A stretch of DNA of 64,000 nt, taken from contig JAMPGU010000002.1 of NCBI GenBank assembly GCA_023663865.1, positions 80,592 through 144,591 of the forward strand, written 5' to 3'. Made by a program: the position numbers and the translations under genes. The stretch is from Clostridium sp. GTDB taxonomy: Bacteria; Bacillota; Clostridia; Oscillospirales; Acutalibacteraceae. The notes beneath the pieces are model-generated. The model was not told where the DNA came from. It ran no database searches and worked only from the letters and a program-made list of their open reading frames with translations. Shown in pieces: positions 33,330-50,949 of the stretch (position 1 is its first letter; the number at the start of each line of letters is the position of its first letter).

Positions 33330-33773
33330 TCATTCCATTTGCTTTCCTAAGAAGGCAGCAGCCACCTGAACCAGCTTAATATCCGTTTCACTCGGCAAAG
33401 CATGCTCCTCGTCCTCAATAAGAGCAACTGCACCGCTGACATCACCGCCATATATTATAGGATAAACAACATTCGCCTTACGGTTAAAGCCTTCAATCGC
33501 ATTCATACTCGGGATTGTATCCGATGCAATATGAATGGCTCTGTTTTCCATTAAATCCTCTAAATTTTTGGTAACACGTCTTTCCAGAATTTCACGCTTG
33601 CTGATACCGGAGGCAGCAATCACATGGTCATTATCCATAATGGCAATTGGCAAACCGCCGTTTTTGTGCAGCACCTCTGCATACTGGTTTGCAAAATTAG
33701 ACAGCTCTCCGATGGGCGAATATTTTTTAAAAATAACCTCACCCTCAGCATCTGTAAAAATTTCCAAAGGGTC
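33330..33773 (-). pseudogene. spoVT: spoVT 3' part (codons 33-178), separated by the element
   Basis: This segment encodes the SpoVT residues after Asp32. Joined to codons 1-32 at 51206-51111, it gives an uninterrupted 178-codon frame, the same length as Bacillus subtilis SpoVT. The fragment is intact, not decayed, so the gene is better described as interrupted than dead. SpoVT is a forespore regulator with an AbrB-type DNA-binding domain and a GAF-like sensor; here only the sensor part lies on this side and is currently translated as the tail of the recombinase. Confidence 0.93.
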
Positions 33774-35519
33774 ACCACTACTGATAACATTGACATCAAG
33801 AGCCTTGTCCTTCTGGTGTGTCACCTTAAGGACTACTTTGGCATTTGAGTTACTCCTGATGTCCCAATCAAAATTTACAGCTTTATTCAGTGGTACAAAA
33901 TCCGGCATAAGTTCCTCGCTTATTGTTCCTGTTTCCAAAAGCATTTGTATATCGCTTTTCAGCTGTATATCAATATGGTCATCATAAATATCTACACGGT
34001 CAATAATGATTTCAAGGTCATTTTTGTCAATCAGCTCTTTATTCAATATATCATTGAAAATATCAATAGCTGTACGGGCAATGCGATTTACCTTGATTAT
34101 TGTATTTTCTCGTTCGGTTGCAAAAGTTATCTGCTTTTCTATGCCGGCAATTCTGCTGTGCAAATCATTAATCAAATATTCATAGCTTTCTTCAATTACA
34201 TCTGCGTTATCAGGATTTTTCTGTATTTCCTTAATCTTTTGACGCATTGTAACTACAAGTTCATCCTTTGCATCTGACAGTTGAGTTTGCAATTCGCTGA
34301 TTTCGGATTGACCTTTTTTGAGGTTCTTTTTTTCGTCCTTAATTCCTTGCTCTAATTTTGCAAGCATTTCTTCGGAATTTTTCACAACTCTTGCAACATA
34401 GCTTTTTAAGATGGCAGTGAGCATATCAACTCTTGTATGATGTGACGTGCATCCCTTTAATCCTCGTTTGTGATAGGTTCCGCAGGTGTAGGCTGCCGCC
34501 ATATCCGAACGGCTCATTGAAAACATAGGGCTCCCGCAATCTCCGCAGAATAAAAAACCGCTGAAAGAGGTATCGTATTTTTTAACACCCCTGTAATTTG
34601 AGCGTGTTCGCTTTTTCATTTGTTCCTGAACCGTGGCAAAGGTCCTGTAATCAATTATGGGTTCGTGATGATTTTCAAACACGATATGGCTGCTTTCGGA
34701 AAGTTTTACATCAGGTCCGTTGATTTTGGAACGGCTATACTTTTTCTGACGAAGCGTACCTATATAAAAATCATTACCTAAAATACCTTGAATGGTAGGA
34801 ATTGCCCAAACAGGCTTTGCTTTGATTTTATTAGGTATATTTTGTTCGTCTTTACGCTGTTTTTCAATCATTCGAGGTGTTGGGATGTGTTCATCAGTCA
34901 GATAGTTGGCGATTTTTTTATATCCCCAGCCTTCAAGATACAACGAGAATATCTTTTTAACCACCTCTGCAGCTTGTGGCTCAATTTCAAAATAGCCTAA
35001 TTTAGTGTTGGTAATCACATAACCAAATGGCACACTGCATATCCAATCACCACTCTTTTGCTTAACATCTATAACTCGTCTTACTTTTTTTGATGTATCT
35101 GTTACAGGCATTTCATTCATAAGAAATTTAAACTGAATAAGCGTCCAGTCATCCTGAACAGGATAATCAATACCATCATTTATAGCAATGATGCGAAGTC
35201 CGCAATCCCTTAAATCCTCAAGCTCAACAAGACCTCTGCTGTTTCTACGGGAAAAACGTGACAAATCTTTTACCATTAAAATATCATAATTTCCATTTTT
35301 TAGTAATGGACGAAGCCGCATATAATCCTCTCTTTGCTCAAAAGTATAACCGCTTCTATCTCTGTCGGTATAAAAATCAAGCTGTGCATCAGGAAATTCT
35401 CTTGAAACAAACATCTCAATGCTGCGTCGTTGGTTTTCTATTGATGTATTGTCACGATCCTCTTCCGTATCAACGGAAATTCGCAGATAACCGGCAATTT
35501 TCAAAATCTTATTTGCCAT
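33330..35519 (-). CDS. Large serine recombinase fused in frame to the SpoVT C-terminal domain
   Basis: This 729-residue frame is a chimera. Residues 1-583 form a large serine recombinase: resolvase domain with catalytic S15 in YLRIS and DLSRFSRR, recombinase domain at about 165-300, zinc-ribbon cysteines (FCGDCGSPMF, YTCGTYHKRGLKGC) and a coiled coil at about 375-460. Residues 584-729 are the C-terminal 146 residues of SpoVT (PLEIFTDAEGEVIFKKY and the GAF-like sensor domain ending AAAFLGKQME). The fusion point is the attachment core GGTGACC, read as Gly-Asp. In the circular form the recombinase would instead end with the 25-residue tail now found at 51033-51107. The chimera may still be an active integrase or may be altered by the sensor domain. 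Confidence 0.92.
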   Translation of the reverse strand: MANKILKIAGYLRISVDTEEDRDNTSIENQRRSIEMFVSREFPDAQLDFYTDRDRSGYTFEQREDYMRLRPLLKNGNYDILMVKDLSRFSRRNSRGLVELEDLRDCGLRIIAINDGIDYPVQDDWTLIQFKFLMNEMPVTDTSKKVRRVIDVKQKSGDWICSVPFGYVITNTKLGYFEIEPQAAEVVKKIFSLYLEGWGYKKIANYLTDEHIPTPRMIEKQRKDEQNIPNKIKAKPVWAIPTIQGILGNDFYIGTLRQKKYSRSKINGPDVKLSESSHIVFENHHEPIIDYRTFATVQEQMKKRTRSNYRGVKKYDTSFSGFLFCGDCGSPMFSMSRSDMAAAYTCGTYHKRGLKGCTSHHTRVDMLTAILKSYVARVVKNSEEMLAKLEQGIKDEKKNLKKGQSEISELQTQLSDAKDELVVTMRQKIKEIQKNPDNADVIEESYEYLINDLHSRIAGIEKQITFATERENTIIKVNRIARTAIDIFNDILNKELIDKNDLEIIIDRVDIYDDHIDIQLKSDIQMLLETGTISEELMPDFVPLNKAVNFDWDIRSNSNAKVVLKVTHQKDKALDVNVISSGDPLEIFTDAEGEVIFKKYSPIGELSNFANQYAEVLHKNGGLPIAIMDNDHVIAASGISKREILERRVTKNLEDLMENRAIHIASDTIPSMNAIEGFNRKANVVYPIIYGGDVSGAVALIEDEEHALPSETDIKLVQVAAAFLGKQME
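33750..33795. repeat. Attachment site at the left end of the element (spoVT 3' half-site plus element half-site)
   Basis: The core GGTNACC is at 33770-33776, with predicted crossover dinucleotide at 33772-33773. To its right lies the element arm ACTGATAACATTGACA (33780-33795), the exact complement of the arm at 51090-51105 at the other end. To its left lies spoVT sequence. Confidence 0.88.
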
Positions 35520-35533
35520 AATACTCCTTCCTT

Positions 35534-35580
35534 TTACAATGTTGTTATAATTATTGTTTTAATTACTGATAACATTGTAA
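35534..35580. promoter_or_regulatory. Att-arm-like dyad in the recombinase promoter region
   Basis: ACTGATAACATTG at 35565-35577 is identical over 13 bases to the element arm of the attachment sites. It pairs with TTACAATGTT at 35534-35543 to form a dyad of 10-base exact arms just upstream of the recombinase ATG. This suggests that the recombinase binds its own promoter, for autoregulation; that is inferred. Confidence 0.55.
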
Positions 35581-35650: not shown

Positions 35651-35950
35651 CTATCTTTCATATTCACGCTCTCTGCGTTTTTTGAGTTTTTCTGCCTGTG
35701 CCATTTCGGTTCTGACCTCATTTCTTGCAGATAATTCTCGGTTATACTTCAGTAATCTGATTGTGTTTTCCACTAAATCTTCTTCACCTGATAACAACAC
35801 AGCCACTTTGTAGCCTGCCGCTTTACATTTTTTATAATACGGCTTAAGGCTTTCTCTGAATTCCGTGTCGTCCCGTTCCTCTTTAGAAAGATAGAGACAA
35901 ACCACCTTTTCTTTTTCTAACACTTCACGAAGCAAATCATTTACCTCCAT
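35651..35950 (-). CDS. Small charged protein of unknown function
   Basis: The frame gives 99 residues, alpha/beta in the first 65 (KVVCLYLS, YKVAVLLSGEEDLVENTIRLL) and a highly charged helix at the end (EKLKKRREREYER). No family is recognised. The ATG at 35950 has a weak ribosome site, while a TTG at 35935 sits 8 bases after GGAGG, so the protein may be five residues shorter. It follows the relaxase gene after 39 bases and precedes the recombinase, and so could be an accessory of transfer or of excision. That is speculation from position. Confidence 0.6.
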   Translation of the reverse strand: MEVNDLLREVLEKEKVVCLYLSKEERDDTEFRESLKPYYKKCKAAGYKVAVLLSGEEDLVENTIRLLKYNRELSARNEVRTEMAQAEKLKKRREREYER

Positions 35951-35989: not shown

Positions 35990-37351
35990 TTATCTTTCTT
36001 GATTTATTTTTGCTCTTTGAGTTATCCTGATATTTTCCATCGTCATTTCCGTTTTGAGTAGTTCATCAAGATGTGATACTCTTTCAAGTACAGATTTGGC
36101 AATTTTCATTTCATCCCGCAGCGGCTTCATTTTCTTTGTAAGTTTTCTTGCTTTTGCATAAAGTAGTTCCTTATCGCTGTTATTTGCTCTGCGGCAACGA
36201 TTATAAATGCATTGTCTTTGAGAAGATAAAATGTTAATCTGCCCTTGTTTTTGCTCAATAAATAAAGAAAGCTCCTCAACCGAACGAATTCCATTCTTGG
36301 TAAGGAGCAAATATTCCTTATTTATTTTTTCTGCGTTTCTAACCTCTTGCCTGAGCATTGGAGACAGAGGCTTTGCTTTATCTTGACTGATATTATTGCC
36401 TGTCAGTAACTTCAATAACTCGCTTATCAAAGCAAAGGTTAATTGAATACCATTCATATTTTTGAGTTGATTATACCCTACGAGTAACAACTTTAACGGC
36501 TTCTCTTTCGGTTTATAAAACAAATATCCCGAATCAAATCCGTTTTTATAATAGTTTTCGTCAAGTCTTCGCTTAATCTCATTAGCAGGATAGCCAATGC
36601 TTTTCATTCGTATTGGTCTTTGCCAGCCGGGAGCAATAACAACGAGGTTGCAATCATTATCTCTTTTCAGTTTATACCCCATAGTTTTTAGGTGGTGTAC
36701 AAAACTATACCGATCTGTTGCCATTTGCAATGACTCTTCAATATCATGCTTAAGCATATCTCTGTGCGTCATTTTACCTGACTGATGAAACCAATAAGTG
36801 TTCTTATTTTTTGAGTAAAAGTTGGCATTTTTGATAACGGATTTACCATAATTAAGACATATCTCATCAGAAATTTGCCGTAATAATTTGTGGTCGCTAA
36901 TCTTGTTTTCAAACTTCTTGCCATCAACAAATGACAAGGAATTGACTACAATATGGTTATGAATATTATCCGTATTCAGGTGGGTAGTAACTAAAACTTC
37001 ATATCTGTTGCCCCACATTTTCTGTGCAGTTATGATACCGATTTTGTGAGCCTCTTCAGGTGTAACCTCGCCACTAACAAAACTCTGATAACCGTGATAA
37101 GCGACATTACCGCCAAACTTTCCGAAGCGTTTTTTAGTCGTCATCATGGCTTCATAAGCACTTGGTGCTGCACAGTTTATACCTGTAACATACATCTTTT
37201 TGTCAGTCTTTTGTTCATTTTCAGAATAGTTTATTACTCTCGCCAAATCATTATCAACATATCTTTTGTCGATAGTTTTATCAGGATTTTGGGCATAATC
37301 AATAACCTCTTTAAGTGATGATTTTACAGGCCAAAATCCTGTTGTTGCCAT
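35990..37351 (-). CDS. MOBP-type relaxase/mobilization nuclease
   Basis: This 453-residue protein has the relaxase N-terminal domain: a probable catalytic tyrosine Y19 (EVIDYAQNP), an NCAAPSAYEAMM stretch and the metal-binding histidine triad in HLNTDNIHNHIVVNS at about 124-138. The C-terminal half is helical and basic. It nicks the element's oriT and leads the strand into a recipient using a helper conjugation system. GGAG precedes the ATG, and it starts 4 bases after mobC, so the two are co-translated. Confidence 0.9.
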   Translation of the reverse strand: MATTGFWPVKSSLKEVIDYAQNPDKTIDKRYVDNDLARVINYSENEQKTDKKMYVTGINCAAPSAYEAMMTTKKRFGKFGGNVAYHGYQSFVSGEVTPEEAHKIGIITAQKMWGNRYEVLVTTHLNTDNIHNHIVVNSLSFVDGKKFENKISDHKLLRQISDEICLNYGKSVIKNANFYSKNKNTYWFHQSGKMTHRDMLKHDIEESLQMATDRYSFVHHLKTMGYKLKRDNDCNLVVIAPGWQRPIRMKSIGYPANEIKRRLDENYYKNGFDSGYLFYKPKEKPLKLLLVGYNQLKNMNGIQLTFALISELLKLLTGNNISQDKAKPLSPMLRQEVRNAEKINKEYLLLTKNGIRSVEELSLFIEQKQGQINILSSQRQCIYNRCRRANNSDKELLYAKARKLTKKMKPLRDEMKIAKSVLERVSHLDELLKTEMTMENIRITQRAKINQER

Positions 37352-37355
37352 AAAA

Positions 37356-37643
37356 TCATCTCCTATCCTCCGCTAAAAATTCATTTCTGATATCATCAAT
37401 AAGTTTTAATAATTCAACTTCTGTTTTATTACTGACCTTATCACTGCAAAGTGAATAGAGCATATTTATCCGTGAGTAAAACGGATAAAAAGCATCGGGC
37501 GGTATTGTTTTGGGCGTGTGTCCAAATGCCATTTTACGAAGATATTCTGAAACAGAAAGACCACATTTTTTCGCTTTATTGTAAATAATATTTTGCTCTT
37601 TTTGAGTAACTCTGATAAAAATACTTTTATCTCTTTTGTTCAT
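37356..37643 (-). CDS. MobC-like mobilization accessory protein
   Basis: This 95-residue protein has a ribbon-helix-helix-like N-terminus (KSIFIRVTQKEQNIIYNKAKK, SVSEYLRKMAFG) and a helical end. This matches MobC/plasmid mobilization relaxosome proteins that bind oriT and help the relaxase nick. The ATG follows GAAAGGAAC. It lies between the candidate oriT and the relaxase gene, the usual order. Confidence 0.85.
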   Translation of the reverse strand: MNKRDKSIFIRVTQKEQNIIYNKAKKCGLSVSEYLRKMAFGHTPKTIPPDAFYPFYSRINMLYSLCSDKVSNKTEVELLKLIDDIRNEFLAEDRR

Positions 37644-38990: not shown

Positions 38991-39009
38991 AAATAAAAAG
39001 GTGAACAAA

Positions 39010-40398
39010 ATGTTTATAGGACGAGAAAAAGAAATAAATGAATTAAATAAACTCTATCATTCCGACAAGTTTGAATTTGCCGTTATATATGGCAGACGCC
39101 GTGTTGGAAAAACAGCTCTTATTAATGAATTTACGAAAGATAAAGACACTGTTTTCTTTACCGGTGTTGAAACAAATGCAAAACAAAATCTTGAAAATTT
39201 TTCAAAAAGCATTATGGAGTACAATACAGGTAAAATTGTTGATTCAACCTTTTCTTCCTTTCAATCTGCATTGGAATATGTTTTTGAATTGGCGAAAAGC
39301 AAAAGAATTGTGCTTGTAATTGATGAGTATCCATATGTCGCTCGTGCGTCAAAAAGTCTTGCCTCTACGCTTCAGCTTTTGATAGATAAATATAAAGATG
39401 AGTCAAAATTATTTTTGATTCTTTGTGGTTCGTCTATGTCATATATGGAAGATAAAGTATTAGCATATAAAGCACCGCTTTACGGCAGAAGAACGGCACA
39501 GTTTAAAATACAGCCATTTGACTTTTTTGAAGTTTGTGATTATTTCAAAAATTATACCGCTGAAGAAAAACTAATGGCTTATGGAATTATCGGAGGTACA
39601 CCTCAATATCTCTTGCAGATAAATGATAAGATTTCTATTGAAGACAATATAAAAAATATATATCTTAACCCGACTTCCGCTATATACGAAGAACCAAATA
39701 ACCTTTTGAAACAGGAAGTCAGAGAGCCTGCAATTTATAATGCGATTATTACTGCCGTTGCTGCAGGCGCATCAAAAATGAGTGAGATTTCAAGTAAGGT
39801 AGCAGAGGATACAAGCGTATGCTCAACCTATATTAAAAATCTTATTTCACTTGGCATTATAAAAAAGGAAACACCTTACGGCGAAAAATCAAGTCGAAAA
39901 ACAATTTATTCTATTGAGGATAATATGTTTCGTTTTTGGTATCGCTTTGTTCCTGAAAATACATCTGTTATTTCCCGTGGTGCGACGGAACTTGCATATA
40001 AACGAATTGAACCTATGCTTTCAACTTATATGGGCAGTGTATTTGAAGAAATTTGCAAGCAATATTTGTGGAATCAACTGCTTGACGGAAAAAGCCCGAT
40101 AAATTTTTCAGATCTCGGTAGATGGTGGGGAGCAAATCCCAAAACCAAAATGCAGGAAGAAATTGATATTATGGGTACTGATAAAGACTCTGCTTTATTC
40201 GCCGAATGCAAATGGACAAATGAAAAGGTTGATACAGGAGTATTAGATACTCTTGTAAATCGCAGCGAATTATTCCATTTTAAAGAAAAACATTTTTATC
40301 TATTCGCCAAAACAGGCTTTACAAAAGGCTGTGTTGACAAAGCAGATGGGATGGATAATGTAACACTTGTTACCTACAATGATATGTTAAATGCGTAA
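39010..40398 (+). CDS. Archaeal-type ATPase with C-terminal DUF234 nuclease-like domain
   Basis: This 462-residue protein has the P loop YGRRRVGKTAL near residue 30, Walker B-like VLVIDEYPYVARAS, a winged-helix region at about 245-300 and a C-terminal DUF234 domain (MQEEIDIMGTDKDSALFAECKWTNEKVD) whose D..E.K pattern resembles a PD-(D/E)XK nuclease. Such proteins are common in mobile elements and defence islands; the role is unclear. ATG 39010 behind AAGGTG was chosen over a GTG three codons earlier. It is transcribed from a strong, repeat-flanked promoter and ends at a perfect hairpin. Confidence 0.85.
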   Translation: MFIGREKEINELNKLYHSDKFEFAVIYGRRRVGKTALINEFTKDKDTVFFTGVETNAKQNLENFSKSIMEYNTGKIVDSTFSSFQSALEYVFELAKSKRIVLVIDEYPYVARASKSLASTLQLLIDKYKDESKLFLILCGSSMSYMEDKVLAYKAPLYGRRTAQFKIQPFDFFEVCDYFKNYTAEEKLMAYGIIGGTPQYLLQINDKISIEDNIKNIYLNPTSAIYEEPNNLLKQEVREPAIYNAIITAVAAGASKMSEISSKVAEDTSVCSTYIKNLISLGIIKKETPYGEKSSRKTIYSIEDNMFRFWYRFVPENTSVISRGATELAYKRIEPMLSTYMGSVFEEICKQYLWNQLLDGKSPINFSDLGRWWGANPKTKMQEEIDIMGTDKDSALFAECKWTNEKVDTGVLDTLVNRSELFHFKEKHFYLFAKTGFTKGCVDKADGMDNVTLVTYNDMLNA

Positions 40399-40402
40399 AA
40401 TC

Positions 40403-40448
40403 CAATTTCAATTTAATCATTTTAATAAAAATGATTAAATTGAAATTG
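40403..40448 (+). terminator. Perfect 21-base hairpin after the ATPase gene
   Basis: Arms at 40403-40423 and 40428-40448 are exactly complementary with a four-base AATA loop. The right arm ends inside the -35 element of the next promoter. Confidence 0.8.
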
Positions 40449-40474
40449 ACATTACACCATTAATCATGTATAAT
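40446..40474 (+). promoter_or_regulatory. Consensus promoter of fic-hsdM-hsdS
   Basis: TTGACA (40446-40451) and TATAAT (40469-40474) match the consensus with a 17-base spacer. The -35 overlaps the upstream hairpin by three bases. Confidence 0.85.
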
Positions 40475-40503
40475 ATGAATAAATCTACTAACCAGGAGAA
40501 ATC

Positions 40504-41562
40504 ATGAGAAACTTTGATTACAAAAAACAATGCGATGAGTTATTAACACCTGAAATTGTTGCTTTATTAACACAAATACATGAATATAAAGGCGAGTATA
40601 ATAGATACATTACTACAAAAAAAGATATTTTGGAAAGACTTGTTGATGTTTCAATAATTCAGAGCACAGATGCATCAAATAAGATTGAGGGTATTTATAC
40701 TTCTGATGAACGCTTAAAAAAATTAGTATTATCAAAAACTACACCCAAAAACAGAAGCGAACAAGAAATTGCTGGTTATCGTGATGTACTTTCTAATATT
40801 CACGAAAACTATCAATATATGCCAATAATTCCTTCTATGATATTGCAGCGCCATAGTGAGTTGTATAAATACGAAGGTGTGAGCGTTGGCGGATACTATA
40901 AAATTGATAATAATATCATTGAAGAAATTGATGAGTTTGGAAATAAAATAGTTAGATTTGAGCCAGTTGAGTATTGGGAAGTTCCAAATGCAATGGAAGA
41001 AATATGTAAACAATACAACGAAAATGTCAATTTTAATAAAGTTGATCCGCTTTTAGCAATTTCTATATTTATATTCGATTTTTTATGCATACATCCATTC
41101 AAAGATGGTAATGGCAGAATGAGTAGATTATTAACATTATTAATGTTGTATAAATCAGATTATATAATAGGAAAATATATTAGTATAGAAAAATTGATTG
41201 AGCAATCCAAATATATGTATTATTATGTATTAAAAGAATGTTCTAATAATTGGCATGAAGGAACCAATGATTACAAGCCTTTTGTAAAGTACTTTCTTGG
41301 AATAATTGTAAAAGCGTATAGAGAGTTTGAAGAGAGAATAATAGTTATTGAAGAAAGCGCTTCAAAACCAGATCAAGTAACTGAAATTATGAAAAACACT
41401 TTTGGAAAAATAACCAAAAAAGAGTTATTGGAAATGTGCCCAAACATGAGCCAAGTTACAGTTCAAAGAACATTAAATGACTTGTTAAAGCAAAATAAGA
41501 TAATAAAAATTGGTGGCGGAAGATACACCTCATATACTTGGAACAGGGAGAAAGAAAAATGA
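40504..41562 (+). CDS. Fic family protein with inhibitory motif and C-terminal winged helix
   Basis: This 352-residue protein has the full Fic active-site motif HPFKDGNGRMSR with H197. An N-terminal SNKIEG (S58-G63) fits the inhibitory (S/T)xxxE(G/N) motif of class II Fic enzymes. The C-terminal domain looks like a winged helix (TKKELLEMCPNMSQVTVQRTL). Class II Fic enzymes AMPylate target proteins when de-inhibited. The stop overlaps the hsdM ATG (ATGA), so Fic is translated with the methyltransferase; it probably acts with or on the restriction system, an inference. AGGAG precedes the ATG. Confidence 0.92.
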   Translation: MRNFDYKKQCDELLTPEIVALLTQIHEYKGEYNRYITTKKDILERLVDVSIIQSTDASNKIEGIYTSDERLKKLVLSKTTPKNRSEQEIAGYRDVLSNIHENYQYMPIIPSMILQRHSELYKYEGVSVGGYYKIDNNIIEEIDEFGNKIVRFEPVEYWEVPNAMEEICKQYNENVNFNKVDPLLAISIFIFDFLCIHPFKDGNGRMSRLLTLLMLYKSDYIIGKYISIEKLIEQSKYMYYYVLKECSNNWHEGTNDYKPFVKYFLGIIVKAYREFEERIIVIEESASKPDQVTEIMKNTFGKITKKELLEMCPNMSQVTVQRTLNDLLKQNKIIKIGGGRYTSYTWNREKEK

Positions 41563-43061
41563 TTACAGGCGAATTGAAAAATAAAATTGATGGCATTTGG
41601 GATGTATTTGCAACCGGTGGTATTGTTAATCCACTTGACGTTATTGAACAGATAACTTATTTGATGTTTATACACGACCTTGATGAATCGGATAATCTTA
41701 AAGCAAAAGAAAGTGCTATGCTGGGCTTGCCTCATGAAAGCATTTTTAGTGGTGAGGTAGAAATCGGCGATAGAAAAATTGAAGGCAATCAACTCAAATG
41801 GTCTGTGTTCCACGACTTTCCAGCAGGCAAAATGTATTCAGTAGTTCAAGAATGGGTGTTCCCCTTTATCAAAACATTACATAGCGATAAGGATAGTGCC
41901 TATTCTAAATATATGGACGATGCGATTTTCAAGTTACCAACTCCACTTCTTCTTGATAAGGTTATAACGGGTCTTGATGAGGTTTATGAAATGATGAACC
42001 AAATGCAAGCATCAGATGTTCGTGGTGATGTCTATGAATATCTTTTGGCAAAGATTGCAACTGCAGGCAGAAATGGTCAGTTCCGCACACCAAGGCATAT
42101 TATAAAAATGATAGTGGAACTAATGGAACCTAAATCCGACGATGTTATTGTTGATCCAGCTTGTGGGACAAGTGGTTTTCTTGTTGAAGCAAGCGAATAT
42201 CTAAAAGCTAATCGCAAGGAAGAAATTTTCTTCGACAAAATCAAAAAAGATCATTTTATGAATCACATGTTCTATGGTTATGATATGGACAGAACAATGC
42301 TTCGTATTGGTGCTATGAATATGATGACTCATGGTGTAGACAAACCTTTCATAGAATATCGTGACAGTTTGTCCGATCAAAATCCGGATAAAGAAAAATA
42401 CAGCCTGATTCTTGCTAATCCGCCTTTTAAGGGCAGTTTGGATTATGACACGGTTTCTGCTGATTTGCTGAAGGTTTGCAAAACAAAGAAAACAGAACTG
42501 CTGTTCCTTGCACTGTTTTTGCGTATGCTGAAAATCGGTGGCAGATGTGCGTGTATTGTTCCTGATGGTGTGCTTTTTGGTTCCTCAACTGCTCATAAAG
42601 CAATTCGCCGTGCTATTATTGAGGATAATAAACTCGAAGCTGTTATTTCAATGCCTTCCGGTGTGTTCAAGCCTTACGCAGGCGTTTCTACTGCTATACT
42701 CATTTTTACCAAAACTGAACACGGCGGCACAGACAAAGTTTGGTTTTATGATATGCAGGCAGATGGTTTCAGTCTTGACGATAAGCGTACTCCTACCGAT
42801 AAAAATGATATTCCCGATATAATAGAAAGATTTAAAAATCTTGAAAACGAAGTTGAGCGAAAAAGAACAGAGCAGTCATTTCTTGTTCCGAAACAGGAAA
42901 TTGTTGATAATGAATATGATTTGTCAATCAATAAGTACAAAGAAATTGAGTATGTGCCTGTTGAATATCCGCCAACAGAAGAAATTCTTGCAGAGATTAA
43001 CGAACTTGAAATAGAATTTCAAAAAACTCTTGCAGAATTGGAGGAGTTAATGAATGAATAA
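41559..43061 (+). CDS. hsdM: Type I restriction-modification DNA methyltransferase subunit
   Basis: This 500-residue N6-adenine methyltransferase has the HsdM N-terminal helical domain, the SAM site DPACGTSGF (D199 onward) and the catalytic NPPF at N287. It forms the modification complex with HsdS and the restriction complex with HsdR. The start was set at ATG 41559, which overlaps the fic stop; an upstream in-frame TTG lies within fic. hsdS begins 8 bases before its stop. Confidence 0.96.
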   Translation: MITGELKNKIDGIWDVFATGGIVNPLDVIEQITYLMFIHDLDESDNLKAKESAMLGLPHESIFSGEVEIGDRKIEGNQLKWSVFHDFPAGKMYSVVQEWVFPFIKTLHSDKDSAYSKYMDDAIFKLPTPLLLDKVITGLDEVYEMMNQMQASDVRGDVYEYLLAKIATAGRNGQFRTPRHIIKMIVELMEPKSDDVIVDPACGTSGFLVEASEYLKANRKEEIFFDKIKKDHFMNHMFYGYDMDRTMLRIGAMNMMTHGVDKPFIEYRDSLSDQNPDKEKYSLILANPPFKGSLDYDTVSADLLKVCKTKKTELLFLALFLRMLKIGGRCACIVPDGVLFGSSTAHKAIRRAIIEDNKLEAVISMPSGVFKPYAGVSTAILIFTKTEHGGTDKVWFYDMQADGFSLDDKRTPTDKNDIPDIIERFKNLENEVERKRTEQSFLVPKQEIVDNEYDLSINKYKEIEYVPVEYPPTEEILAEINELEIEFQKTLAELEELMNE

Positions 43062-44205
43062 ACACAATATATTTGACTGTATGAAAATAGTAGGTTCCGC
43101 ACCTGAACCATTTCAAAGTGAAAAGATTTATGTGAGTACAGGTGCTGTAGATGTTGATCATATTGATTATTCAAAAGTTGATACAGTTCCTTATAACGAT
43201 AGACCATCTCGTGCTAATCTTGTTGCAAAGCCAAATGATATTCTGTTTGCCAAAATGCACGAAACAAAAAAGACTTTACTTTTAGATGAAAACACAAGCG
43301 AAAATATTTATTCTACAGGTTTTTTTGCTGTTAGAGCAATTGAAGAAATAATTACAACAAAATGTTTATATCATTTAATTTGCAGTGATTCTTTTTTAAA
43401 TCAAAAAGACAAGAATTGTTCTGGTGCTACGCAAAAAGCAATAACCAATCAAGGACTTAAGAAGATTTTTATTAGTATTCCTGATTTACTAAAGCAAGAA
43501 AAGCTTGCAACAGTTCTTGATAAAATAGATCATCTTCTCAATACAAGACGAATTCAACTTTTAAAATTGGATGAACTTGTCAAATCCCGATTTGTCGAGA
43601 TGTTTGGGGATGTTATATTCAACTCAAAAAATTGGAAAATATACAAGTTAGACGACATCTCAACATCAAGATTGGGAAAAATGCTCGATTCAAAACAACA
43701 GACCGGTGAATATGTTTTTCCATATTTGGCAAATTTTAATGTTCAATGGTTTCATTTCAACATTGAAAATCTAAATACAATGGATTTCAACGAAGTAGAC
43801 CAAAAGGAATTTCAGCTTGAATATGGCGATTTACTTGTTTGTGAAGGTGGAGAAATTGGAAGATGTGCTGTATGGCATAATGAGGTTCAACCGTGTTTCT
43901 TCCAAAAAGCACTTCATCGTATTAGGTGTAATCTGGAAATAGTGAAACCAGATTATCTATCTTGGTGGTTCAAATTTAACTGCGATAATGGTGGATTTGA
44001 GAATATTGCTGGAGCAAAAGCAACAATAGCTCATTTACCAGGTATAAAATTAAAAGCATTGCAAATTGTTGTACCGCCAATTGAGTTACAGAATCAATTT
44101 GCTATTTTTGTTTCTCAAATAGACAAATCAAAATTGGCAATTGAGAAAAGTATTGAAAAACTTGAAATTCTCAAAAAATCTTTAATGCAGGAGTATTTTG
44201 GATAA
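43054..44205 (+). CDS. hsdS: Type I specificity subunit, expressed copy
   Basis: This 383-residue protein has two target recognition domains (about 1-150 and 195-345), each followed by a helical spacer. The central spacer contains LDELVKSRFVEMFGD and the end IVVPPIELQNQFAIFVSQIDKSK. It overlaps hsdM by 8 bases, so this is the copy translated in the current orientation. The DNA encoding the central spacer (43576-43611) is repeated in inverted orientation in the second hsdS, so recombination would exchange the second recognition domain. Confidence 0.94.
   Translation: MNKHNIFDCMKIVGSAPEPFQSEKIYVSTGAVDVDHIDYSKVDTVPYNDRPSRANLVAKPNDILFAKMHETKKTLLLDENTSENIYSTGFFAVRAIEEIITTKCLYHLICSDSFLNQKDKNCSGATQKAITNQGLKKIFISIPDLLKQEKLATVLDKIDHLLNTRRIQLLKLDELVKSRFVEMFGDVIFNSKNWKIYKLDDISTSRLGKMLDSKQQTGEYVFPYLANFNVQWFHFNIENLNTMDFNEVDQKEFQLEYGDLLVCEGGEIGRCAVWHNEVQPCFFQKALHRIRCNLEIVKPDYLSWWFKFNCDNGGFENIAGAKATIAHLPGIKLKALQIVVPPIELQNQFAIFVSQIDKSKLAIEKSIEKLEILKKSLMQEYFG
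43576..43611 (+). repeat. Inverted repeat, copy in expressed hsdS
   Basis: These 36 bases, coding for the LVKSRFVEMFGD spacer, match the inverted copy at 44819-44854 at 32 positions, with TCGAGATGTTTGG as the longest exact run. It is the likely crossover site for inversion of about 1.24 kb. Confidence 0.75.
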
Positions 44206-44227
44206 TAAAAATTGCCAACTTGATGAT

Positions 44228-45322
44228 TTAAGATTGAAAATGCTTGAAAAAGTTAAGTGAATTTAGCAAATTTATAGTAATTAAACTTTCAAATTTTGAT
44301 TTGTCGACTTGATATACATAATTTGAAAACTTATTTTGTATATCAATCGGGGGAATCGGTATTTCTAAATTAAGTATATCTTTATTTGATATATTAGCTT
44401 GTCGAACGCCTCTACTAATTCCTGTTAATTTCTTTTTGATAGCGGAAAATTTAAGTACTTGAGATAAATAGTGTTTATTAATTGTTTGATATAATTTTAA
44501 CTTTGCATTTCGTTGATTTAGATAATAACAATCATAATCATTGCCCAATATACAAACATTACCATAATCGTCTTTTCCAACAGTTCCGGTTAAAGACATT
44601 ACTAAATCACCAGCATACATCATATATCTTGATAAACTTTCATCATATTTCCAAAACACTAGATTATTCGGCTGAAAACATCCTGAATTTATATTACCTA
44701 TTCTCAAAATAGGAATACCAATTTCAGTGAAAAGTTCACTTTTAAACGCATATCCACCAACTACATTTAAATGATACAAAAGTTTTTGCTTACTCCACTT
44801 CATAGAATTTGATACTGGATCACCAAACATCTCGATAAATCGGGACTTGACGAGATTGTCATAATTTTTTAATTGTTGCTTTTTTATTGCAATTAGTTTA
44901 TTCAATCTATCGCCAATACTGTTAATAGTTGTTTGCTTATCAATAGAAATATCTGGCACTTGAATATCTAAAATATATTTTTTAGATATGTGTTGTAACC
45001 CAGCTCCGTGAAATCCATCTTCAAGAAGCTGCATATGTGATTCAAAAAATAAATATAATGATTTTAAAGCGTAATCTTTCCTATTGCTATAGAAAACAAT
45101 ACAATCAGTAGAAGTTGAAAACGGTTCATCACAATAATGAACACTTGGAATTCCACCAGTTCCAAAAATCAAAGCAGGTTTGTCATATTGAAAAAAGTCA
45201 ACATATTTAGTTTGGATATTACTTGAGGTAAAGAATTTATATACTCCTTCTTTTTTTCCTTCTCCTGCCTTAATTTTAGATTTTTCTTGTGCAATTACTA
45301 AATTTCCAAACCTAATACTCAT
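44228..45322 (-). CDS. hsdS: Second, inverted type I specificity gene (silent partner)
   Basis: This 364-residue protein is an intact two-domain HsdS, tail to tail with the first hsdS (22 bases between stops). It has its own spacer NYDNLVKSRFIEMFGD and C-terminal IPIPPIDIQNKFSNYVYQVDKSK. It lacks an adjacent hsdM on its strand, so it probably serves as a reservoir of recognition domains. A second short inverted match, GACAAATCAAAATT (44122-44135 with 44292-44305), lies near both C-termini. A tyrosine recombinase gene lies just upstream on the same strand. Confidence 0.9.
   Translation of the reverse strand: MSIRFGNLVIAQEKSKIKAGEGKKEGVYKFFTSSNIQTKYVDFFQYDKPALIFGTGGIPSVHYCDEPFSTSTDCIVFYSNRKDYALKSLYLFFESHMQLLEDGFHGAGLQHISKKYILDIQVPDISIDKQTTINSIGDRLNKLIAIKKQQLKNYDNLVKSRFIEMFGDPVSNSMKWSKQKLLYHLNVVGGYAFKSELFTEIGIPILRIGNINSGCFQPNNLVFWKYDESLSRYMMYAGDLVMSLTGTVGKDDYGNVCILGNDYDCYYLNQRNAKLKLYQTINKHYLSQVLKFSAIKKKLTGISRGVRQANISNKDILNLEIPIPPIDIQNKFSNYVYQVDKSKFESLITINLLNSLNFFKHFQS
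44819..44854 (-). repeat. Inverted repeat, copy in second hsdS
   Basis: This is the partner of 43576-43611, with four differences in 36 bases. A third partial copy, ATCGGGATTTGACAA, is at 45363-45377 between the second hsdS and the tyrosine recombinase gene. Confidence 0.75.
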
Positions 45323-45388
45323 GCTGCAACCCCCATTCTATTGGTAATAGACTCACCGAGATATCGGGATTTGACAATGGGATATGTA

Positions 45389-46384
45389 TTAACCGATATA
45401 TTTTCGGTGTGAGATTTTTACATTGTTCTGGTCTACCATAGCGTATTCCATAGTGGTGTCTATTTTGGAATGGCCGAGCAACTTTTGTACCTGTTCGATT
45501 GGCATGCCTTTATCTATTGCTTTTGTGGCTAAAGTTCTTCGGAATTTATGTGGATGTACTTTAGCAATATTTAGTTTTCTTCCCAATTCTCGCAGTCGGA
45601 TTTCTACTCCGCTGATTTCAAGTCTATCGTGTGGTTTTAACAGAGATACGAAAAGTGCAGGATTGTCATCTGCTCGAGTATCAAGATAATTCTTCAGATG
45701 AATTTTTGTTCTTGCATCAAAATAAACAGGCCTTTCTTTGCTACCTTTACCGAATACAATACATTCACGATTTTCAAAATCTATATCGGATATATTTAAG
45801 TGGACAAGTTCGCCAACACGGATACCTGTTGATGCAAGTAAGTCGATAATTGCTAAATCTCTTAAACATGAACAATTATCACGCATTGTTTCAAGTGCTT
45901 CATCTGTGTAAGTTTCTTTAACTGTTTTGGCAGTTTTGATTTTATGTATGCGTCGGACAGGACTTTTGAGAATATAGTTTTCATCCTCAAGCCATGCAAA
46001 AAAACTTGATAGAATTCGTCTGATATTGTCAATATTGCCTTTGCTGCAATTATTTATTTTTTGATATTCGGATAAATATTTGCGTAAATCGTCTGTTGTG
46101 ATGTGAGAAATGTGTTTATCCAGTAAATCAAACATTTTTTGTATTGTTGCTTTGTAATAACGCAGTGTTTTTTCACTGCAGCCTTCAACTTTTTTAGCAG
46201 ATGTGAAAAGTTCAAGATAATCCTCATTCGACATCATTTCTTTTTGCAATGAGCTGTTTTTATTTTTAGAAATATCAACATCCCATAATGTATGACTCAG
46301 TACATAGTGCAATTGTTCCATCTGAGCATTATCAAGATATGACAGCATATTTTGCTCAATTTCAGCAATAATTTGATTTTTCAT
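45389..46384 (-). CDS. Tyrosine recombinase, probable hsdS inverter
   Basis: This 331-residue XerC/D-like recombinase has a SAM-like N-terminal core-binding domain and the catalytic set R189 (TGIRVGEL), H279 and R282 (HPHKFRR), H305 (LLGHSKIDTTMEY) and nucleophile Y314. Its position beside two inverted hsdS genes matches phase-variable type I loci in which such an enzyme flips hsdS segments. The serine recombinase at the other end is the better candidate for integrating the whole element. Confidence 0.92.
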   Translation of the reverse strand: MKNQIIAEIEQNMLSYLDNAQMEQLHYVLSHTLWDVDISKNKNSSLQKEMMSNEDYLELFTSAKKVEGCSEKTLRYYKATIQKMFDLLDKHISHITTDDLRKYLSEYQKINNCSKGNIDNIRRILSSFFAWLEDENYILKSPVRRIHKIKTAKTVKETYTDEALETMRDNCSCLRDLAIIDLLASTGIRVGELVHLNISDIDFENRECIVFGKGSKERPVYFDARTKIHLKNYLDTRADDNPALFVSLLKPHDRLEISGVEIRLRELGRKLNIAKVHPHKFRRTLATKAIDKGMPIEQVQKLLGHSKIDTTMEYAMVDQNNVKISHRKYIG

Positions 46385-46460
46385 AGTGATACACCTCTTT
46401 TGTAATAATGTATTACTATAGCATTGACAATAATATTTTACAAAAAGGAAGTTATTTAAT

Positions 46461-47636
46461 ATGGCAGGAAAGGAATATATAAGAAAAACTAAAGAAGATA
46501 AACCGGTATTAGCAATCTGCTATGATTTTGACAAAACTTTATCGCCTGATGATATGCAGGCTCAAGGATATATTCAATCAGTTGGCTATGATGTTGCAAA
46601 TTTTTGGAAAGAATCAAATTCTTTAGCAGAAGAAAATGATATGGATGGAAATTTAGCTTATATGTATAAAATGATTGAAGAGGCGGAAGGTCATTTTGTT
46701 TTTAATAAAAATACTCTTGCTGAATATGGTTCAAAAGTATCTCTTTTCCCTGGAGTAAATGAATGGTTTGAAAGAATACGAGAATTTGGTGCTGAAAATG
46801 ATGTTATCGTAGAGCATTATATTATTTCGTCAGGTCTTAAAGAAATGATAGAGGGAACAGAAGTAGCCAAGAATGGCGCATTTGAAAGAATATATGCAAG
46901 TTCTTTCTATTTCAATGAAAGAGGCGTAGCCAAATGGCCGGCTCAGGTTATTAATTATACGAACAAAACTCAGTTCCTATTTAGAATTTCAAAGGGCGTT
47001 TTAGATATAAATGATCCGGGTGTTAATGACCATTTCCATAATGATGAAATGAGAGTGCCTTTTAGAAATATGGTTTATATTGGTGATAGTGATACGGATA
47101 TTCCATGTATGAAACTGGTTAATTCATATGGCGGACATTCCATAGGTGTATACAATCCCGACACAATGGACAAAACGAAAGTATACAAAATGATGCGGGA
47201 CAACAGAATAAAATATTATGTGCCTGCCGATTATTCAGAAAACACGGAATTAGATAAATTATTAAAAGCTATTATCTTAAAAACCGCCAAAAATGAAGAA
47301 TTAGAAAACATTCATTATAAATATTTAAATGAAGTTGAAACAGTTGATAAACCTGATGTTGAAAAAATAGAAAAACGAGAAAAATTAGAATTAATATCGG
47401 ATTTAAGGAATAGCAGCTCTTTTGCCGAAACACATATGATAATAAAAAAATTACAGTCATATAATGATTGGTCTGATGAAATGGCAAATGAGTTGTTAAA
47501 TATTGCCATATGTAATAGTCAGGTGAAATTAATTATTTCTGATATTGATGTGGCTGAATTTTATAGAGATTTAATAAAAAATACTACTGGAGATCAAGAA
47601 TATATTGAAGAAATAAAAAATATGCTAAATGCGTAA
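46461..47636 (+). CDS. HAD-superfamily hydrolase inside the restriction operon
   Basis: This 391-residue protein has the HAD nucleophile motif CYDFDKTLSPDD near residue 25, motif II IISSG and the acidic motif IV VYIGDSDTDIPCM, then a helical C-terminal region of about 130 residues of unknown role. AGGAAG precedes the ATG. hsdR begins 20 bases after its stop, so it is co-transcribed with the restriction subunit. A nucleotide or phosphoprotein substrate is possible. Its link to Fic-type AMPylation or to restriction control is only an inference. Confidence 0.82.
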   Translation: MAGKEYIRKTKEDKPVLAICYDFDKTLSPDDMQAQGYIQSVGYDVANFWKESNSLAEENDMDGNLAYMYKMIEEAEGHFVFNKNTLAEYGSKVSLFPGVNEWFERIREFGAENDVIVEHYIISSGLKEMIEGTEVAKNGAFERIYASSFYFNERGVAKWPAQVINYTNKTQFLFRISKGVLDINDPGVNDHFHNDEMRVPFRNMVYIGDSDTDIPCMKLVNSYGGHSIGVYNPDTMDKTKVYKMMRDNRIKYYVPADYSENTELDKLLKAIILKTAKNEELENIHYKYLNEVETVDKPDVEKIEKREKLELISDLRNSSSFAETHMIIKKLQSYNDWSDEMANELLNIAICNSQVKLIISDIDVAEFYRDLIKNTTGDQEYIEEIKNMLNA

Positions 47637-47655
47637 ATGGTTATTAGGTGGTAAC

Positions 47656-50600
47656 ATGACAAACTTTGATTATTTGAAAAATGAATCTAAATTTGACAGC
47701 TTTGCTGATGTTGCTATTGCAGCAGAGAAAATTTTACATATTGATATTGCTGCAAGCGTTATGAATTGTCGAAGAGCAATGGAATATGCTGTCAAATGGA
47801 TGTATTCAGTTGATACGGCACTTGAAAAGCCATACAATGATCAGCTTGTAAATCTTGTCAATAATGAGAATTTCCGTGATGTGGTAGGTACTGATTTATG
47901 GCGCAGACTTGATTTTATTCGCAAAGTCGGTAATTCAGCAGCACACAATGCGAAAAAAGTGTCAGCTGAACAAGCTGAATTGTGTCTTGAAAACTTGTTT
48001 GTTTTCTTTGACTTTATTGCTTATTGCTATAGTTCTGAAACATATGTTGAAAGACATTACGATAATGCATTGTTGAATCAACAAGACTCGAAAGAAACAA
48101 ATCAGAAATTTGCTGATATCGAACTTGAGTCTTTGATAAAAGAAAACGAATCACTTAAGGCAGAGCTTACGGCACGAAGAGAAGAACAGCAACAAACCTA
48201 TGTTGCCAAACCGCTTGAACTCAGCGAATTTAAAACAAGAAAAATATATATTGATACAATGCTGCAGGATGCAGGATGGATTGAAGGTAAAAATTGGCTT
48301 AATGAGGTTGAGCTGGAAGGAATGCCGAATAATTCAGGTGTAGGTTTTGCAGATTATGTGCTTTATGATGATACCGGCAAACCACTTGCTGTTATTGAAG
48401 CAAAACGAACATGTAAGGATGTTGCAATCGGCAGGCAGCAGGCAAAATTATATGCAGATATTCTTGAAAAAAAGTATGGCAGGCGACCAGTTATATTTTT
48501 GACTAATGGATTTGAAACAAGAATAACCGATAATCTTTATCCTGAAAGAAAATGCGCTGCTATCTATTCAAAACGAGATTTAGAAAAGTTTTTCAATATT
48601 CAAACTATGAGAACCAGCCTTAAGCATATAAATGTTGATTCCAATATTGCCGGCAGATATTATCAGGAGGCTGCTATCAAAGCTGTTTGTAATAGTTTCG
48701 GAGAAAAAAATCGCCGTAAAGCACTTCTTGTTATGGCAACAGGGTCAGGTAAAACCAGAACCGTTATTGCTCTTGTCAAGGTTCTGTTGGAACACGGCTG
48801 GATAAAAAATGTTTTATTTCTTGCAGACAGAAATTCACTTGTAACGCAAGCGAAGCGTTCGTTTGTGAATCTTCTCCCTGATTTTTCAGTAACCAACTTA
48901 TGCGAGGAAAAGGATAACACTACAGCACATTGCATATTTTCGACATATCAAACTATGATTAACTGCATAGATGATATAAAGGATGATGAGGGAAAACTTT
49001 TTACATGCGGGCATTTTGACCTTGTTATATGTGATGAAGCGCATAGGTCAATTTATAATAAATATAAGGATATATTTACTTATTTTGATGCCCCGCTTGT
49101 TGGCTTAACAGCTACACCAAAAGATGAGATTGAAAAAAATACTTATGAGGTTTTTGAACTTGATAATGGTGTTCCTACATATGGCTATGAGCTTGCTCAG
49201 GCTGTAAAAGATGGATATCTTATTGACTATATGTCTGTTGAAACGACACTGAAATTTATAGATCAGGGTATTGTTTATGATGATTTATCTGATGATGATA
49301 AGCAAGCCTATGAGAATACTTTTGAAGATGAAAATGGTGAACTTCCGGAAACAATTCAATCATCAGCACTTAATGAATGGGTATTTAATGAGGATACCAT
49401 AAAAGAAGTGTTGAATATTTTGATGACCAAAGGACTTCGAATTGACTACGGAGAAAAATTAGGTAAAAGTATTATTTTTGCAAAAAATCATCGCCATGCT
49501 GAAGTGATTTTTGAAATATTTAATAAAGAGTATCCTAATTACAACGGATATGCTAAGGTAATAGATAATTATACGAATTATGCACAAAGTGCTATTGATG
49601 AGTTTTCCGATCCGAAAAAGCCGCCACAGATTGCTATATCTGTTGATATGCTTGATACCGGTATTGATGTTCCAGAAGTTCTTAATCTTGTATTTTTTAA
49701 AAAAGTTATGAGTAAAGCAAAATTCTGGCAGATGATTGGCAGAGGTACAAGACTTTGTCCAAATTTGATAGACGGTAAGGATAAAGATAAATTTTATATA
49801 TTTGATTTTTGCGGCAATTTTGAATTTTTCAGATTTTCAAACGGAAAACCGACTGCCAATATGATTGCTCTTCAGGGTGCAATATTTAATCTTAAAACAC
49901 AAATTGTTTTCAAACTCCAAGATGCAGATTATCAAATTACTCAGCTTGTTGAATTCAGAAAACTGCTTATCGATGAAATGGTTGCAAAAGTCAAAGAATT
50001 GAATCGTGAAAACTTTGCGGTTCGTCAGCATCTCCGATCTGTTGATTTGTATTCAAACTCGGATAATTACAATTGTTTGACTTATGAAAACACGCTTAAA
50101 ATAAAAGAAGAACTTGCACCACTCATACTGCCGGATGAAGATGAACCAAGCGCAATTCGTTTTGATGCTCTTATGTACGGTATAGAACTTGCCTATCTTG
50201 TTGGTAAAAAGTACACTCGTGCAAGGTCAGACCTTATGAAAAAGGTTAATGCAATAGCGAATATTGCAAACATACCTGAAATTCAATCACATACTGATTT
50301 GATAGAAAAAATTCTTCACACTGATTATGTAGAAAATGCAGATATAAACGAATTTGAACATATCCGTCGAGAACTTCGTAATCTTATGAAATACATCCCT
50401 CGTGGTGAAAGACCTGTATATTTGACTAATTTTGATGATGAAATTCTTGAGATGAATTGGAATGAATCAGAGCTTGACAGTGATGATCTTGCTAATTACA
50501 GAGCAAAAGCAGAATTTTATGTTCGTCAGCATCAGGATAATATTACTATCGCAAAATTAAAATCTAATAAACCTTTAACGCCTTTAGATGTTGAATCACT

Positions 50601-50949
50601 TGAAAAAATTCTTTGGAACGAATTAGGTTCAAAAACGGATTATGAATCTGAATATGGTTCAAAACCACTGGGTGAATTTGTAAGAGAAATTGTAGGGCTT
50701 GATATGAATGCAGCAAAAACTGCATTTGCAGAATATCTTAATAACTCTAATTTGGATAGCAGGCAGATATATTTTGTGAATCAGATTGTTGAATACATAG
50801 TTCATAACGGTCTGATGAAGGATTTATCTGTTTTGCAGGAAGCACCGTTCACAGATCAAGGAAGCATTGTTGAAGTATTTACCGATGTTTCTGTATGGTA
50901 TGGAATAAAAAAAGTTATAGATTCCATCAATGCTAATGCGATTGCATAA
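47656..50949 (+). CDS. hsdR: Type I restriction endonuclease subunit
   Basis: This protein of about 1,097 residues starts with a DUF4145-type domain (RRAMEYAVKWMYSV, RKVGNSAAHN). A nuclease domain with PD-(D/E)XK residues (GFADYVLYDDTGKPLAVIEAKRT) follows, then a superfamily 2 translocase with P loop MATGSGKTRTV (G363), DEAH box (VICDEAHRS) and GLTATP, and a C-terminal HsdR helical domain. The ATG at 47656 after AGGTGG is preferred; the upstream start overlaps the HAD gene. It ends at a strong terminator next to the element's right border. Confidence 0.96.
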   Translation: MTNFDYLKNESKFDSFADVAIAAEKILHIDIAASVMNCRRAMEYAVKWMYSVDTALEKPYNDQLVNLVNNENFRDVVGTDLWRRLDFIRKVGNSAAHNAKKVSAEQAELCLENLFVFFDFIAYCYSSETYVERHYDNALLNQQDSKETNQKFADIELESLIKENESLKAELTARREEQQQTYVAKPLELSEFKTRKIYIDTMLQDAGWIEGKNWLNEVELEGMPNNSGVGFADYVLYDDTGKPLAVIEAKRTCKDVAIGRQQAKLYADILEKKYGRRPVIFLTNGFETRITDNLYPERKCAAIYSKRDLEKFFNIQTMRTSLKHINVDSNIAGRYYQEAAIKAVCNSFGEKNRRKALLVMATGSGKTRTVIALVKVLLEHGWIKNVLFLADRNSLVTQAKRSFVNLLPDFSVTNLCEEKDNTTAHCIFSTYQTMINCIDDIKDDEGKLFTCGHFDLVICDEAHRSIYNKYKDIFTYFDAPLVGLTATPKDEIEKNTYEVFELDNGVPTYGYELAQAVKDGYLIDYMSVETTLKFIDQGIVYDDLSDDDKQAYENTFEDENGELPETIQSSALNEWVFNEDTIKEVLNILMTKGLRIDYGEKLGKSIIFAKNHRHAEVIFEIFNKEYPNYNGYAKVIDNYTNYAQSAIDEFSDPKKPPQIAISVDMLDTGIDVPEVLNLVFFKKVMSKAKFWQMIGRGTRLCPNLIDGKDKDKFYIFDFCGNFEFFRFSNGKPTANMIALQGAIFNLKTQIVFKLQDADYQITQLVEFRKLLIDEMVAKVKELNRENFAVRQHLRSVDLYSNSDNYNCLTYENTLKIKEELAPLILPDEDEPSAIRFDALMYGIELAYLVGKKYTRARSDLMKKVNAIANIANIPEIQSHTDLIEKILHTDYVENADINEFEHIRRELRNLMKYIPRGERPVYLTNFDDEILEMNWNESELDSDDLANYRAKAEFYVRQHQDNITIAKLKSNKPLTPLDVESLEKILWNELGSKTDYESEYGSKPLGEFVREIVGLDMNAAKTAFAEYLNNSNLDSRQIYFVNQIVEYIVHNGLMKDLSVLQEAPFTDQGSIVEVFTDVSVWYGIKKVIDSINANAIA

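What the first reader, a model, noticed from the sequence alone, without database searches (positions are those of the whole stretch)
33330..35519. Serine recombinase fused in frame to the SpoVT sensor domain
The recombinase has no stop at the attachment site and reads through into SpoVT residues 33-178. Integration therefore makes a recombinase carrying a GAF-like sensor and a promoterless SpoVT C-terminus translated from the recombinase start. A sensor on the recombinase could tie excision to the ligand that normally controls SpoVT.
Basis: partly seen in the sequence, partly recalled or inferred. Interest (0 to 1): 0.95.

Follow-up and report, generated by a model that had tools for sequence, protein, structure and literature searches.

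The report
Recombinase that swaps its own tail
This mobile DNA element sits in a bacterium's sporulation gene spoVT in such a way that its recombinase reads in frame into the host's SpoVT sensor domain instead of the short tail the free element would give it, an arrangement seen in 75 of 82 related loci and likely to make the enzyme behave differently once integrated.

Summary
ORF 33330-35519 (minus, 729 aa) is a large serine recombinase fused in frame to SpoVT residues 31-178. The rest of spoVT lies 17.3 kb away (51206-51117). Joining the halves restores a 178-residue SpoVT, gap-free against 24 same-genus genes. The element looks mobilizable and carries a type I restriction system. The fusion is a family trait: 75 of 82 informative related loci are fused at the same codons. 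Identical recombinases carry SpoVT parts only 49% identical, and near-identical SpoVT parts sit behind 38-46% identical recombinases, so integration remakes the fusion. Among 49 distinct tails, Arg24 occurs in 44, in all six codons, and dN/dS is about 0.25 against 1.0-1.3 out of frame. The recombinase therefore has two C-termini, exchanged by its own reaction. I read this as a built-in free/integrated switch. The rival, that the GAF domain is a tolerated by-product, is not excluded, and ligand control of excision is untested. The host has sporulation genes and no other SpoVT_C.

The parts
33777..35519 (-). Element-encoded part of the recombinase (581 residues): catalytic, Recombinase and zinc-ribbon domains, coiled coil, then a linker of about 50-70 residues up to the attachment point
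33330..33776 (-). Host-derived spoVT codons 31-178 (GAF-type SpoVT_C domain) read in frame behind the recombinase
33770..33776 (-). Copy of the 7-bp attachment core GGTGACC at the recombinase end
33780..33795 (-). Left arm of attP, TGTCAATGTTATCAGT, inside the recombinase reading frame
   Evidence: 19 of 23 symmetric pairs around the core; best of 2000 shuffles 15
51090..51105 (-). Right arm of attP, ACTGATAACATTGACA, exact reverse complement of the left arm
51110..51116 (-). Copy of the attachment core GGTGACC at the far end
51036..51116 (-). Alternative C-terminal tail (27 codons) that the free element would give the recombinase; in the integrated state it ends the spoVT N-terminal fragment
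51117..51206 (-). Host spoVT codons 1-30 (AbrB-type DNA-binding half) with its own upstream region
35562..35578 (-). attP-arm-like site ACAATGTTATCAGTAAT in the recombinase's upstream region, touching a promoter-like -10 (35579-35574)
   Evidence: expected by chance 0.04 matches in the window
35651..35950 (-). 99-aa ORF just upstream of the recombinase; similar ORFs in 39 of the 85 related loci, mostly next to the recombinase; possible directionality factor (guess)
35990..37643 (-). Relaxase (35990-37351) and NikA-like mobilization protein (37356-37643)
39001..50949 (.). Cargo: ATPase/DUF234, Fic protein, type I restriction-modification genes hsdM, two hsdS, hsdR, a tyrosine recombinase, a HAD-like protein

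Best explanation
This is a mobilizable element whose attachment site lies inside the 3' end of its own recombinase gene, so integration into the host gene spoVT exchanges the recombinase's C-terminus, and this exchange likely switches the enzyme from an integrating form to an integrated-state form. Shown by sequence: in the integrated state the recombinase reads in frame into the SpoVT GAF domain; at the other end the SpoVT DNA-binding half reads in frame into the element's tail; joining the ends gives an intact SpoVT and a recombinase with a 27-residue tail. Shown by comparison: the fusion recurs in 75 of 82 informative related loci, is remade with the local spoVT when the element moves, and the tail is under protein-level selection. 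Inferred: the tailed protein is the form that integrates; the GAF form is the only form newly made after integration, so any excision must be done, or be blocked, by it; the swapped piece hangs from the zinc-ribbon/coiled-coil end, the region where directionality factors of other serine integrases act, so dimerizing GAF versus short helix probably changes direction or activity. Excision would restore spoVT, so the switch probably also decides whether the host can complete sporulation.
For: Fusion anatomy and att structure. Same fusion point in 120 listed proteins plus the window, and no correlation between recombinase and SpoVT identity (rho -0.05), e.g. P0022/P0105 recombinase 100% with SpoVT 49%. 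75 of 82 informative loci fused, and all 82 keep an open frame from the recombinase through the core, although the linker is weakly constrained (dN/dS 0.52 against 0.04 in the catalytic domain): about 15 stops would be expected among the 393 substitutions of 26 pairs if what follows did not matter. Tail: 49 distinct tails, Arg24 in 44 with all six Arg codons, aromatic at 14 in 40, dN/dS 0.25 (21 pairs) against 1.02 and 1.26 in the other frames. Tail modelled as a helix, residues 40-56, pLDDT about 86-90. A recombinase reading into such a tail exists in a real contig (L110). phiC31 RDF binds the integrase zinc-domain region (PMC5814800, abstract), and the SPbeta integrase and its RDF are listed as one 620-residue PDB chain, 9dxd.
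Against: No expression, excision or activity data. The tail is also carried by the SpoVT N-terminal fragment, so the selection could act there. Being in frame with SpoVT has a one-in-three chance a priori and may have been fixed once in an ancestor. The same recombinases also sit at other sites without GAF (L045, L046, L048, L060, P0162), so GAF is not needed to be integrated. Nine of 49 tails depart from the strict pattern, mostly by insertions, and one tail at a second N-terminal copy (L180) is shorter. The fused model is confident only inside domains (pTM 0.29; linker 530-598 below pLDDT 50), so it says nothing on how GAF meets the recombinase.
Confidence: 0.45

Rival explanations
1. By-product: the attachment site overlaps the 3' end of the recombinase gene, the free form needs its short tail, and the GAF fusion is a harmless consequence in integrated cells.
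For: The tail is under selection, which alone keeps the frame open through the core; the phase relative to spoVT is inherited; the linker is predicted disordered and weakly constrained; integrants at other sites lack GAF.
Against: All 75 spoVT fusions keep a continuous recombinase-GAF frame as far as their contigs go; frames broken after integration would be expected now and then if the fusion were idle, but I saw none among these loci.
Confidence: 0.3
2. The working product of the swap is the SpoVT DNA-binding half with the element's tail, made from the spoVT promoter. It would act as a directionality factor or as an interfering SpoVT, tying excision to the stage when spoVT is switched on.
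For: The 57-60-residue product is open and conserved: 36 database proteins. Tail constraint fits this carrier as well as the recombinase. SpoVT acts in the forespore and C. difficile spoVT mutants gave no heat-resistant spores (PMC3789822, passages). Second copies with promoter persist in some genomes.
Against: It does not explain why the recombinase itself stays in frame with the same tail in attP; no binding or expression evidence.
Confidence: 0.13
3. One reading: the GAF domain senses the SpoVT ligand and lets the fused recombinase excise only when the ligand is present.
For: The GAF-type fold is kept: model residues 600-729 mostly at pLDDT 84-91 and similar to SpoVT 2w1t/2w1r.
Against: No ligand was identified or tested here; nothing ties ligand to excision.
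Confidence: 0.1
4. Assembly or annotation artefact.
For: The window's genome is a 61-contig assembly.
Against: Same fusion in many unrelated assemblies, including isolates such as Ruminococcus bromii 5AMG (L050), R. bicirculans (L062) and R. albus (L101); seamless empty-site reconstruction.
Confidence: 0.01

Closest known systems
skin elements in sigK (B. subtilis, C. difficile), SPbeta in spsM, gin in gerE, yin in yabG
   Same: Large-serine-recombinase elements (or elements with such recombinases) that split a sporulation gene and whose removal rebuilds it (PMC5025042 abstract; PMC4191935, PMC5595907, PMC10747680 seen only as search listings).
   Different: Different target (spoVT, a forespore regulator); as far as those abstracts say, the recombinase is not altered by integration, and a separate directionality factor sets direction in C. 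difficile skin. Here the recombinase's own C-terminus is exchanged.
Integration-dependent immunity of mycobacteriophage BPs
   Same: attP lies inside a coding sequence, so integration changes the C-terminus of an element protein and thereby its behaviour (PMC4557955, abstract).
   Different: There the repressor gains stability by losing a degradation tag; here a recombinase gains a whole host domain and loses a selected tail. None of the 36 tails listed ends in AA.
Serine integrase plus recombination directionality factor (phiC31 gp3, SPbeta SprB)
   Same: A protein piece acting at the zinc-ribbon/coiled-coil end changes reaction direction (PMC5814800 abstract; PMC12412911 passages).
   Different: Here the candidate piece is covalent, host-derived and delivered by the recombination itself; its effect is untested.
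SSV-type integrases of archaea, whose gene is split by integration (recalled; PMC8371274 seen only as a search listing)
   Same: attP within the integrase gene.
   Different: Tyrosine recombinases, and integration breaks the gene rather than giving it a new domain.

Membership tests
Large serine recombinase | Resolvase catalytic domain, Recombinase domain and zinc-ribbon with coiled coil | tested here: met
Large serine recombinase | Catalytic motif conserved (R13-I14-S15; naming S15 as the nucleophile is recalled) | tested here: met
   invariant in 43 aligned sequences
Large serine recombinase | Site-specific integration activity | not testable with these tools
   only its products (attL, attR, empty sites) are seen:
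Integrative and mobilizable element | Recombinase, relaxase and defined ends, no full conjugation machinery | tested here: inconclusive
   relaxase and NikA-like present, ends defined; the larger ORFs between the ends show no conjugation family; small ORFs not scanned
Sporulation gene-intervening element (skin-like) | Lies inside a sporulation gene; precise removal rebuilds the gene | tested here: met
   178-aa SpoVT on joining the flanks, gap-free against 24 same-genus genes; only SpoVT_C of the genome
Sporulation gene-intervening element (skin-like) | Host carries a sporulation programme | tested here: met
   SpoIVA and Spo0A_C families found; two markers only
Sporulation gene-intervening element (skin-like) | Excision occurs during sporulation, in one cell type | not testable with these tools
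   no expression or time-course data
Integration-dependent switch of BPs type | attP inside a coding sequence, C-terminus changed by integration | tested here: met
Integration-dependent switch of BPs type | Switch through a C-terminal degradation tag lost on integration | tested here: inconclusive
   none of the 36 tails listed ends in AA; stability not measurable here

The most novel reading that the evidence does not exclude
A recombinase that carries its own state memory: by cutting through its own gene it trades a selected integrase tail for a host-encoded dimerizing sensor domain, so the free and integrated element make two different enzymes from one gene, and the borrowed SpoVT domain (with the tailed SpoVT DNA-binding half in trans) gates excision to the host's sporulation state.
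Probability: 0.3. Interest if true: 0.93.

Novelty: new variant of a known kind. Interest (0 to 1): 0.8.

Why it matters
Direction control is the open question of serine integrases and normally needs a separate factor. If the C-terminal swap sets direction, one gene encodes both states and the recombination product itself is the switch, which is directly testable and could be borrowed for one-way genetic tools. It also points to a widespread family of elements (2,817 database proteins matched the SpoVT/junction region; the 120 listed all carry SpoVT_C) that disable a gene needed for mature spores in gut and rumen Clostridia until they leave.

Tried and rejected
Rejected: artefact (recurrence); a permanently fused gene travelling as a unit (recombinase and SpoVT identities are uncorrelated; the start of spoVT lies at the other end). 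Led nowhere: free forms in public data. attP pattern in IMG/VR: 0 matches; database search with a tailed recombinase: 99 hits, none with the tail (98 fused, P0162 ends in other sequence); phage and plasmid collections gave fragments or distant recombinases, one 48%-identical fused case (MT836658) and one ending before a clear junction (MT839487). Prevalence: 282 of 393 sampled class genomes have SpoVT_C; the match list was cut, and among the rows shown three frames are long enough to be fusions (732, 732, 765 aa). In 60 relatives, 54 have SpoVT_C, all with frames of 149-252 aa except the window's own 742. Corrected: a first set of 36 tails (Arg24 and aromatic-14 in 36 of 36) came from the best matches to the window's tail and was biased; adding the lower-ranked ones gave 49 distinct tails with the weaker figures used above. 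Dropped from that count: L177 (the L081 inverted junction), three duplicates, and L175, L181, L182, whose fragments did not match my motif. Intact spoVT-sized frames among 50 genomes occur only in G065, G074 and G102, the genomes of unfused L046, L060 and L103 (5 of 50 had no match). Literature: ten searches showed no report of a recombinase-SpoVT fusion; the library lacks most subscription journals and preprints. Durrant 2022 (PMC10083194, passages) did not mention it under the terms searched.

Full report
What is there. ORF 33330-35519 (minus strand) encodes 729 residues: the Resolvase, Recombinase and zinc-ribbon domains of a large serine recombinase, then SpoVT_C. Solved SpoVT (2w1t) aligns to residues 579-729 and serine integrases of SPbeta align to the first 400. 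The first 30 codons of spoVT lie at 51206-51117 on the same strand, followed by element DNA that closes the frame after 27 more codons. Both ends share GGTGACC. Removing everything between gives a 178-residue SpoVT that aligns from end to end without gaps to 24 genes of the same genus (79-95% identity; the three from other families of the order are 53-56%), and the downstream neighbour (DUF6198 protein) matches in 13 of those 29 loci. The element is about 17.3 kb, with relaxase, NikA-like protein and a type I restriction-modification set.

The attachment site. Joining the arms around the core gives an attP with 16-base perfect arms, TGTCAATGTTATCAGT and ACTGATAACATTGACA; 19 of 23 positions around the centre pair, against at most 15 in 2000 shuffles. 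The left arm lies inside the recombinase frame, so the gene cannot end before the crossover.

It is a family trait. Searching genome contigs with a recombinase-only alignment (no SpoVT part) found 382 relatives, of which the best 80 were kept; five more came from viral contigs. Three of the 85 stop at or before the junction (L041, L121, L122). Of the other 82, 75 are fused to SpoVT (74 by profile plus L099, whose contig ends inside SpoVT) and 7 are not: L045, L046, L048 and L060 are at other sites; L081 is joined to the spoVT start in antisense; L103 ends in other sequence with an intact spoVT about 3 kb on; L110 reads into a tail of the free type at a contig end. In 50 of these genomes, spoVT-sized intact frames occur only in three, those of L046, L060 and L103.

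The fusion is remade on integration. Among the 120 listed fused proteins and the window, recombinase and SpoVT identities are uncorrelated (rho -0.05 over 6,786 pairs). P0022 and P0105 have identical recombinases with SpoVT parts 49% identical; P0035 and P0049 have identical SpoVT parts behind recombinases 38% identical, although P0035 is a 588-residue partial sequence.

The alternative tail. At the far end the sequence after the core is a short frame shared, in the same phase, by the spoVT fragment and, in the free element, by the recombinase. 49 distinct tails from unrelated genomes show Arg at position 24 in 44, written with all six Arg codons, an aromatic at 14 in 40, and a length of 27-31 in 38. 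In codons 10-26, beyond the palindrome, dN/dS is 0.25 over 21 disjoint pairs (0.20 over 13 closer ones) and 1.0-1.3 in the two other frames. The model of the window's fragment makes the tail a helix. So the tail works as protein. Thirty-six database proteins of 57-85 residues carry a spoVT start plus such tails.

Why a switch. Between the zinc ribbon and the core the linker evolves loosely (dN/dS 0.52, against 0.04 in the catalytic domain) and is predicted disordered, yet all 82 informative frames are open through the core. Random substitution would give about 15 stops among the 393 changes seen in 26 pairs (3.7% of changes). What follows the core therefore matters: the tail at least, the GAF domain perhaps. 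Since the integrated element can only make the GAF form and the circle only the tailed form, the two reactions face two different proteins. Directionality factors act at the zinc-domain/coiled-coil region of serine integrases (PMC5814800, abstract), next to where the swapped piece hangs. This step is inference.

Sporulation. The host genome has SpoIVA and Spo0A families and no other SpoVT_C. In C. difficile a spoVT mutant gave no heat-resistant spores (PMC3789822, passages). If SpoVT is needed here too, the host sporulates only after excision, as with skin elements, whose excision in C. difficile needs a directionality factor made in the mother cell (PMC5025042, abstract). spoVT acts in the forespore, so an excised element would have to survive in the future spore or be lost; I cannot tell which.

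Limits. No expression or activity data; mostly metagenome-assembled hosts; the free junction seen once; whether GAF matters is open. The by-product view keeps 0.3.

Noticed in passing
window 35562-35578 (minus): ACAATGTTATCAGTAAT, close to the attP arm, sits upstream of the recombinase start against a promoter-like -10, suggesting that the recombinase may repress itself. Similar sites score above the best of 50 shuffles in 13 of 72 loci examined.
   Followed up: partly
window 43054-46384: hsdS on the plus strand faces a second hsdS on the minus strand with a tyrosine recombinase beside them and inverted repeats of 67-74 nt at 72-75%: likely a phase-variable type I restriction specificity locus.
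   Followed up: partly
L156, L157, L158 (G063, G081, G094) and L159/L160 (G102): Some genomes hold a second spoVT start with a different element tail 7.5-12 kb away; where compared (G063, G094) the two share promoter-proximal sequence. G102 has an intact spoVT plus a tailed fragment about 50 kb away. They look like scars of earlier insertions after which the host regained spoVT.
   Followed up: partly
L081 9914-11908: An element in inverted orientation: the recombinase end is joined to the antisense of the spoVT start, as a near-symmetric attP might allow; the fusion is lost there.
   Followed up: partly
L045, L046, L048, L060 and protein P0162: Related recombinases at other sites that share a GGCGA-type core (GGCGA in the four loci), ending a few to over 200 residues after it without GAF: natural comparators for testing what the GAF domain does.
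   Followed up: no
window 46461-47636: HAD-like protein strongly matching a candidate defence model (PDC-S34, 2.2e-193) between the tyrosine recombinase and hsdR.
   Followed up: no
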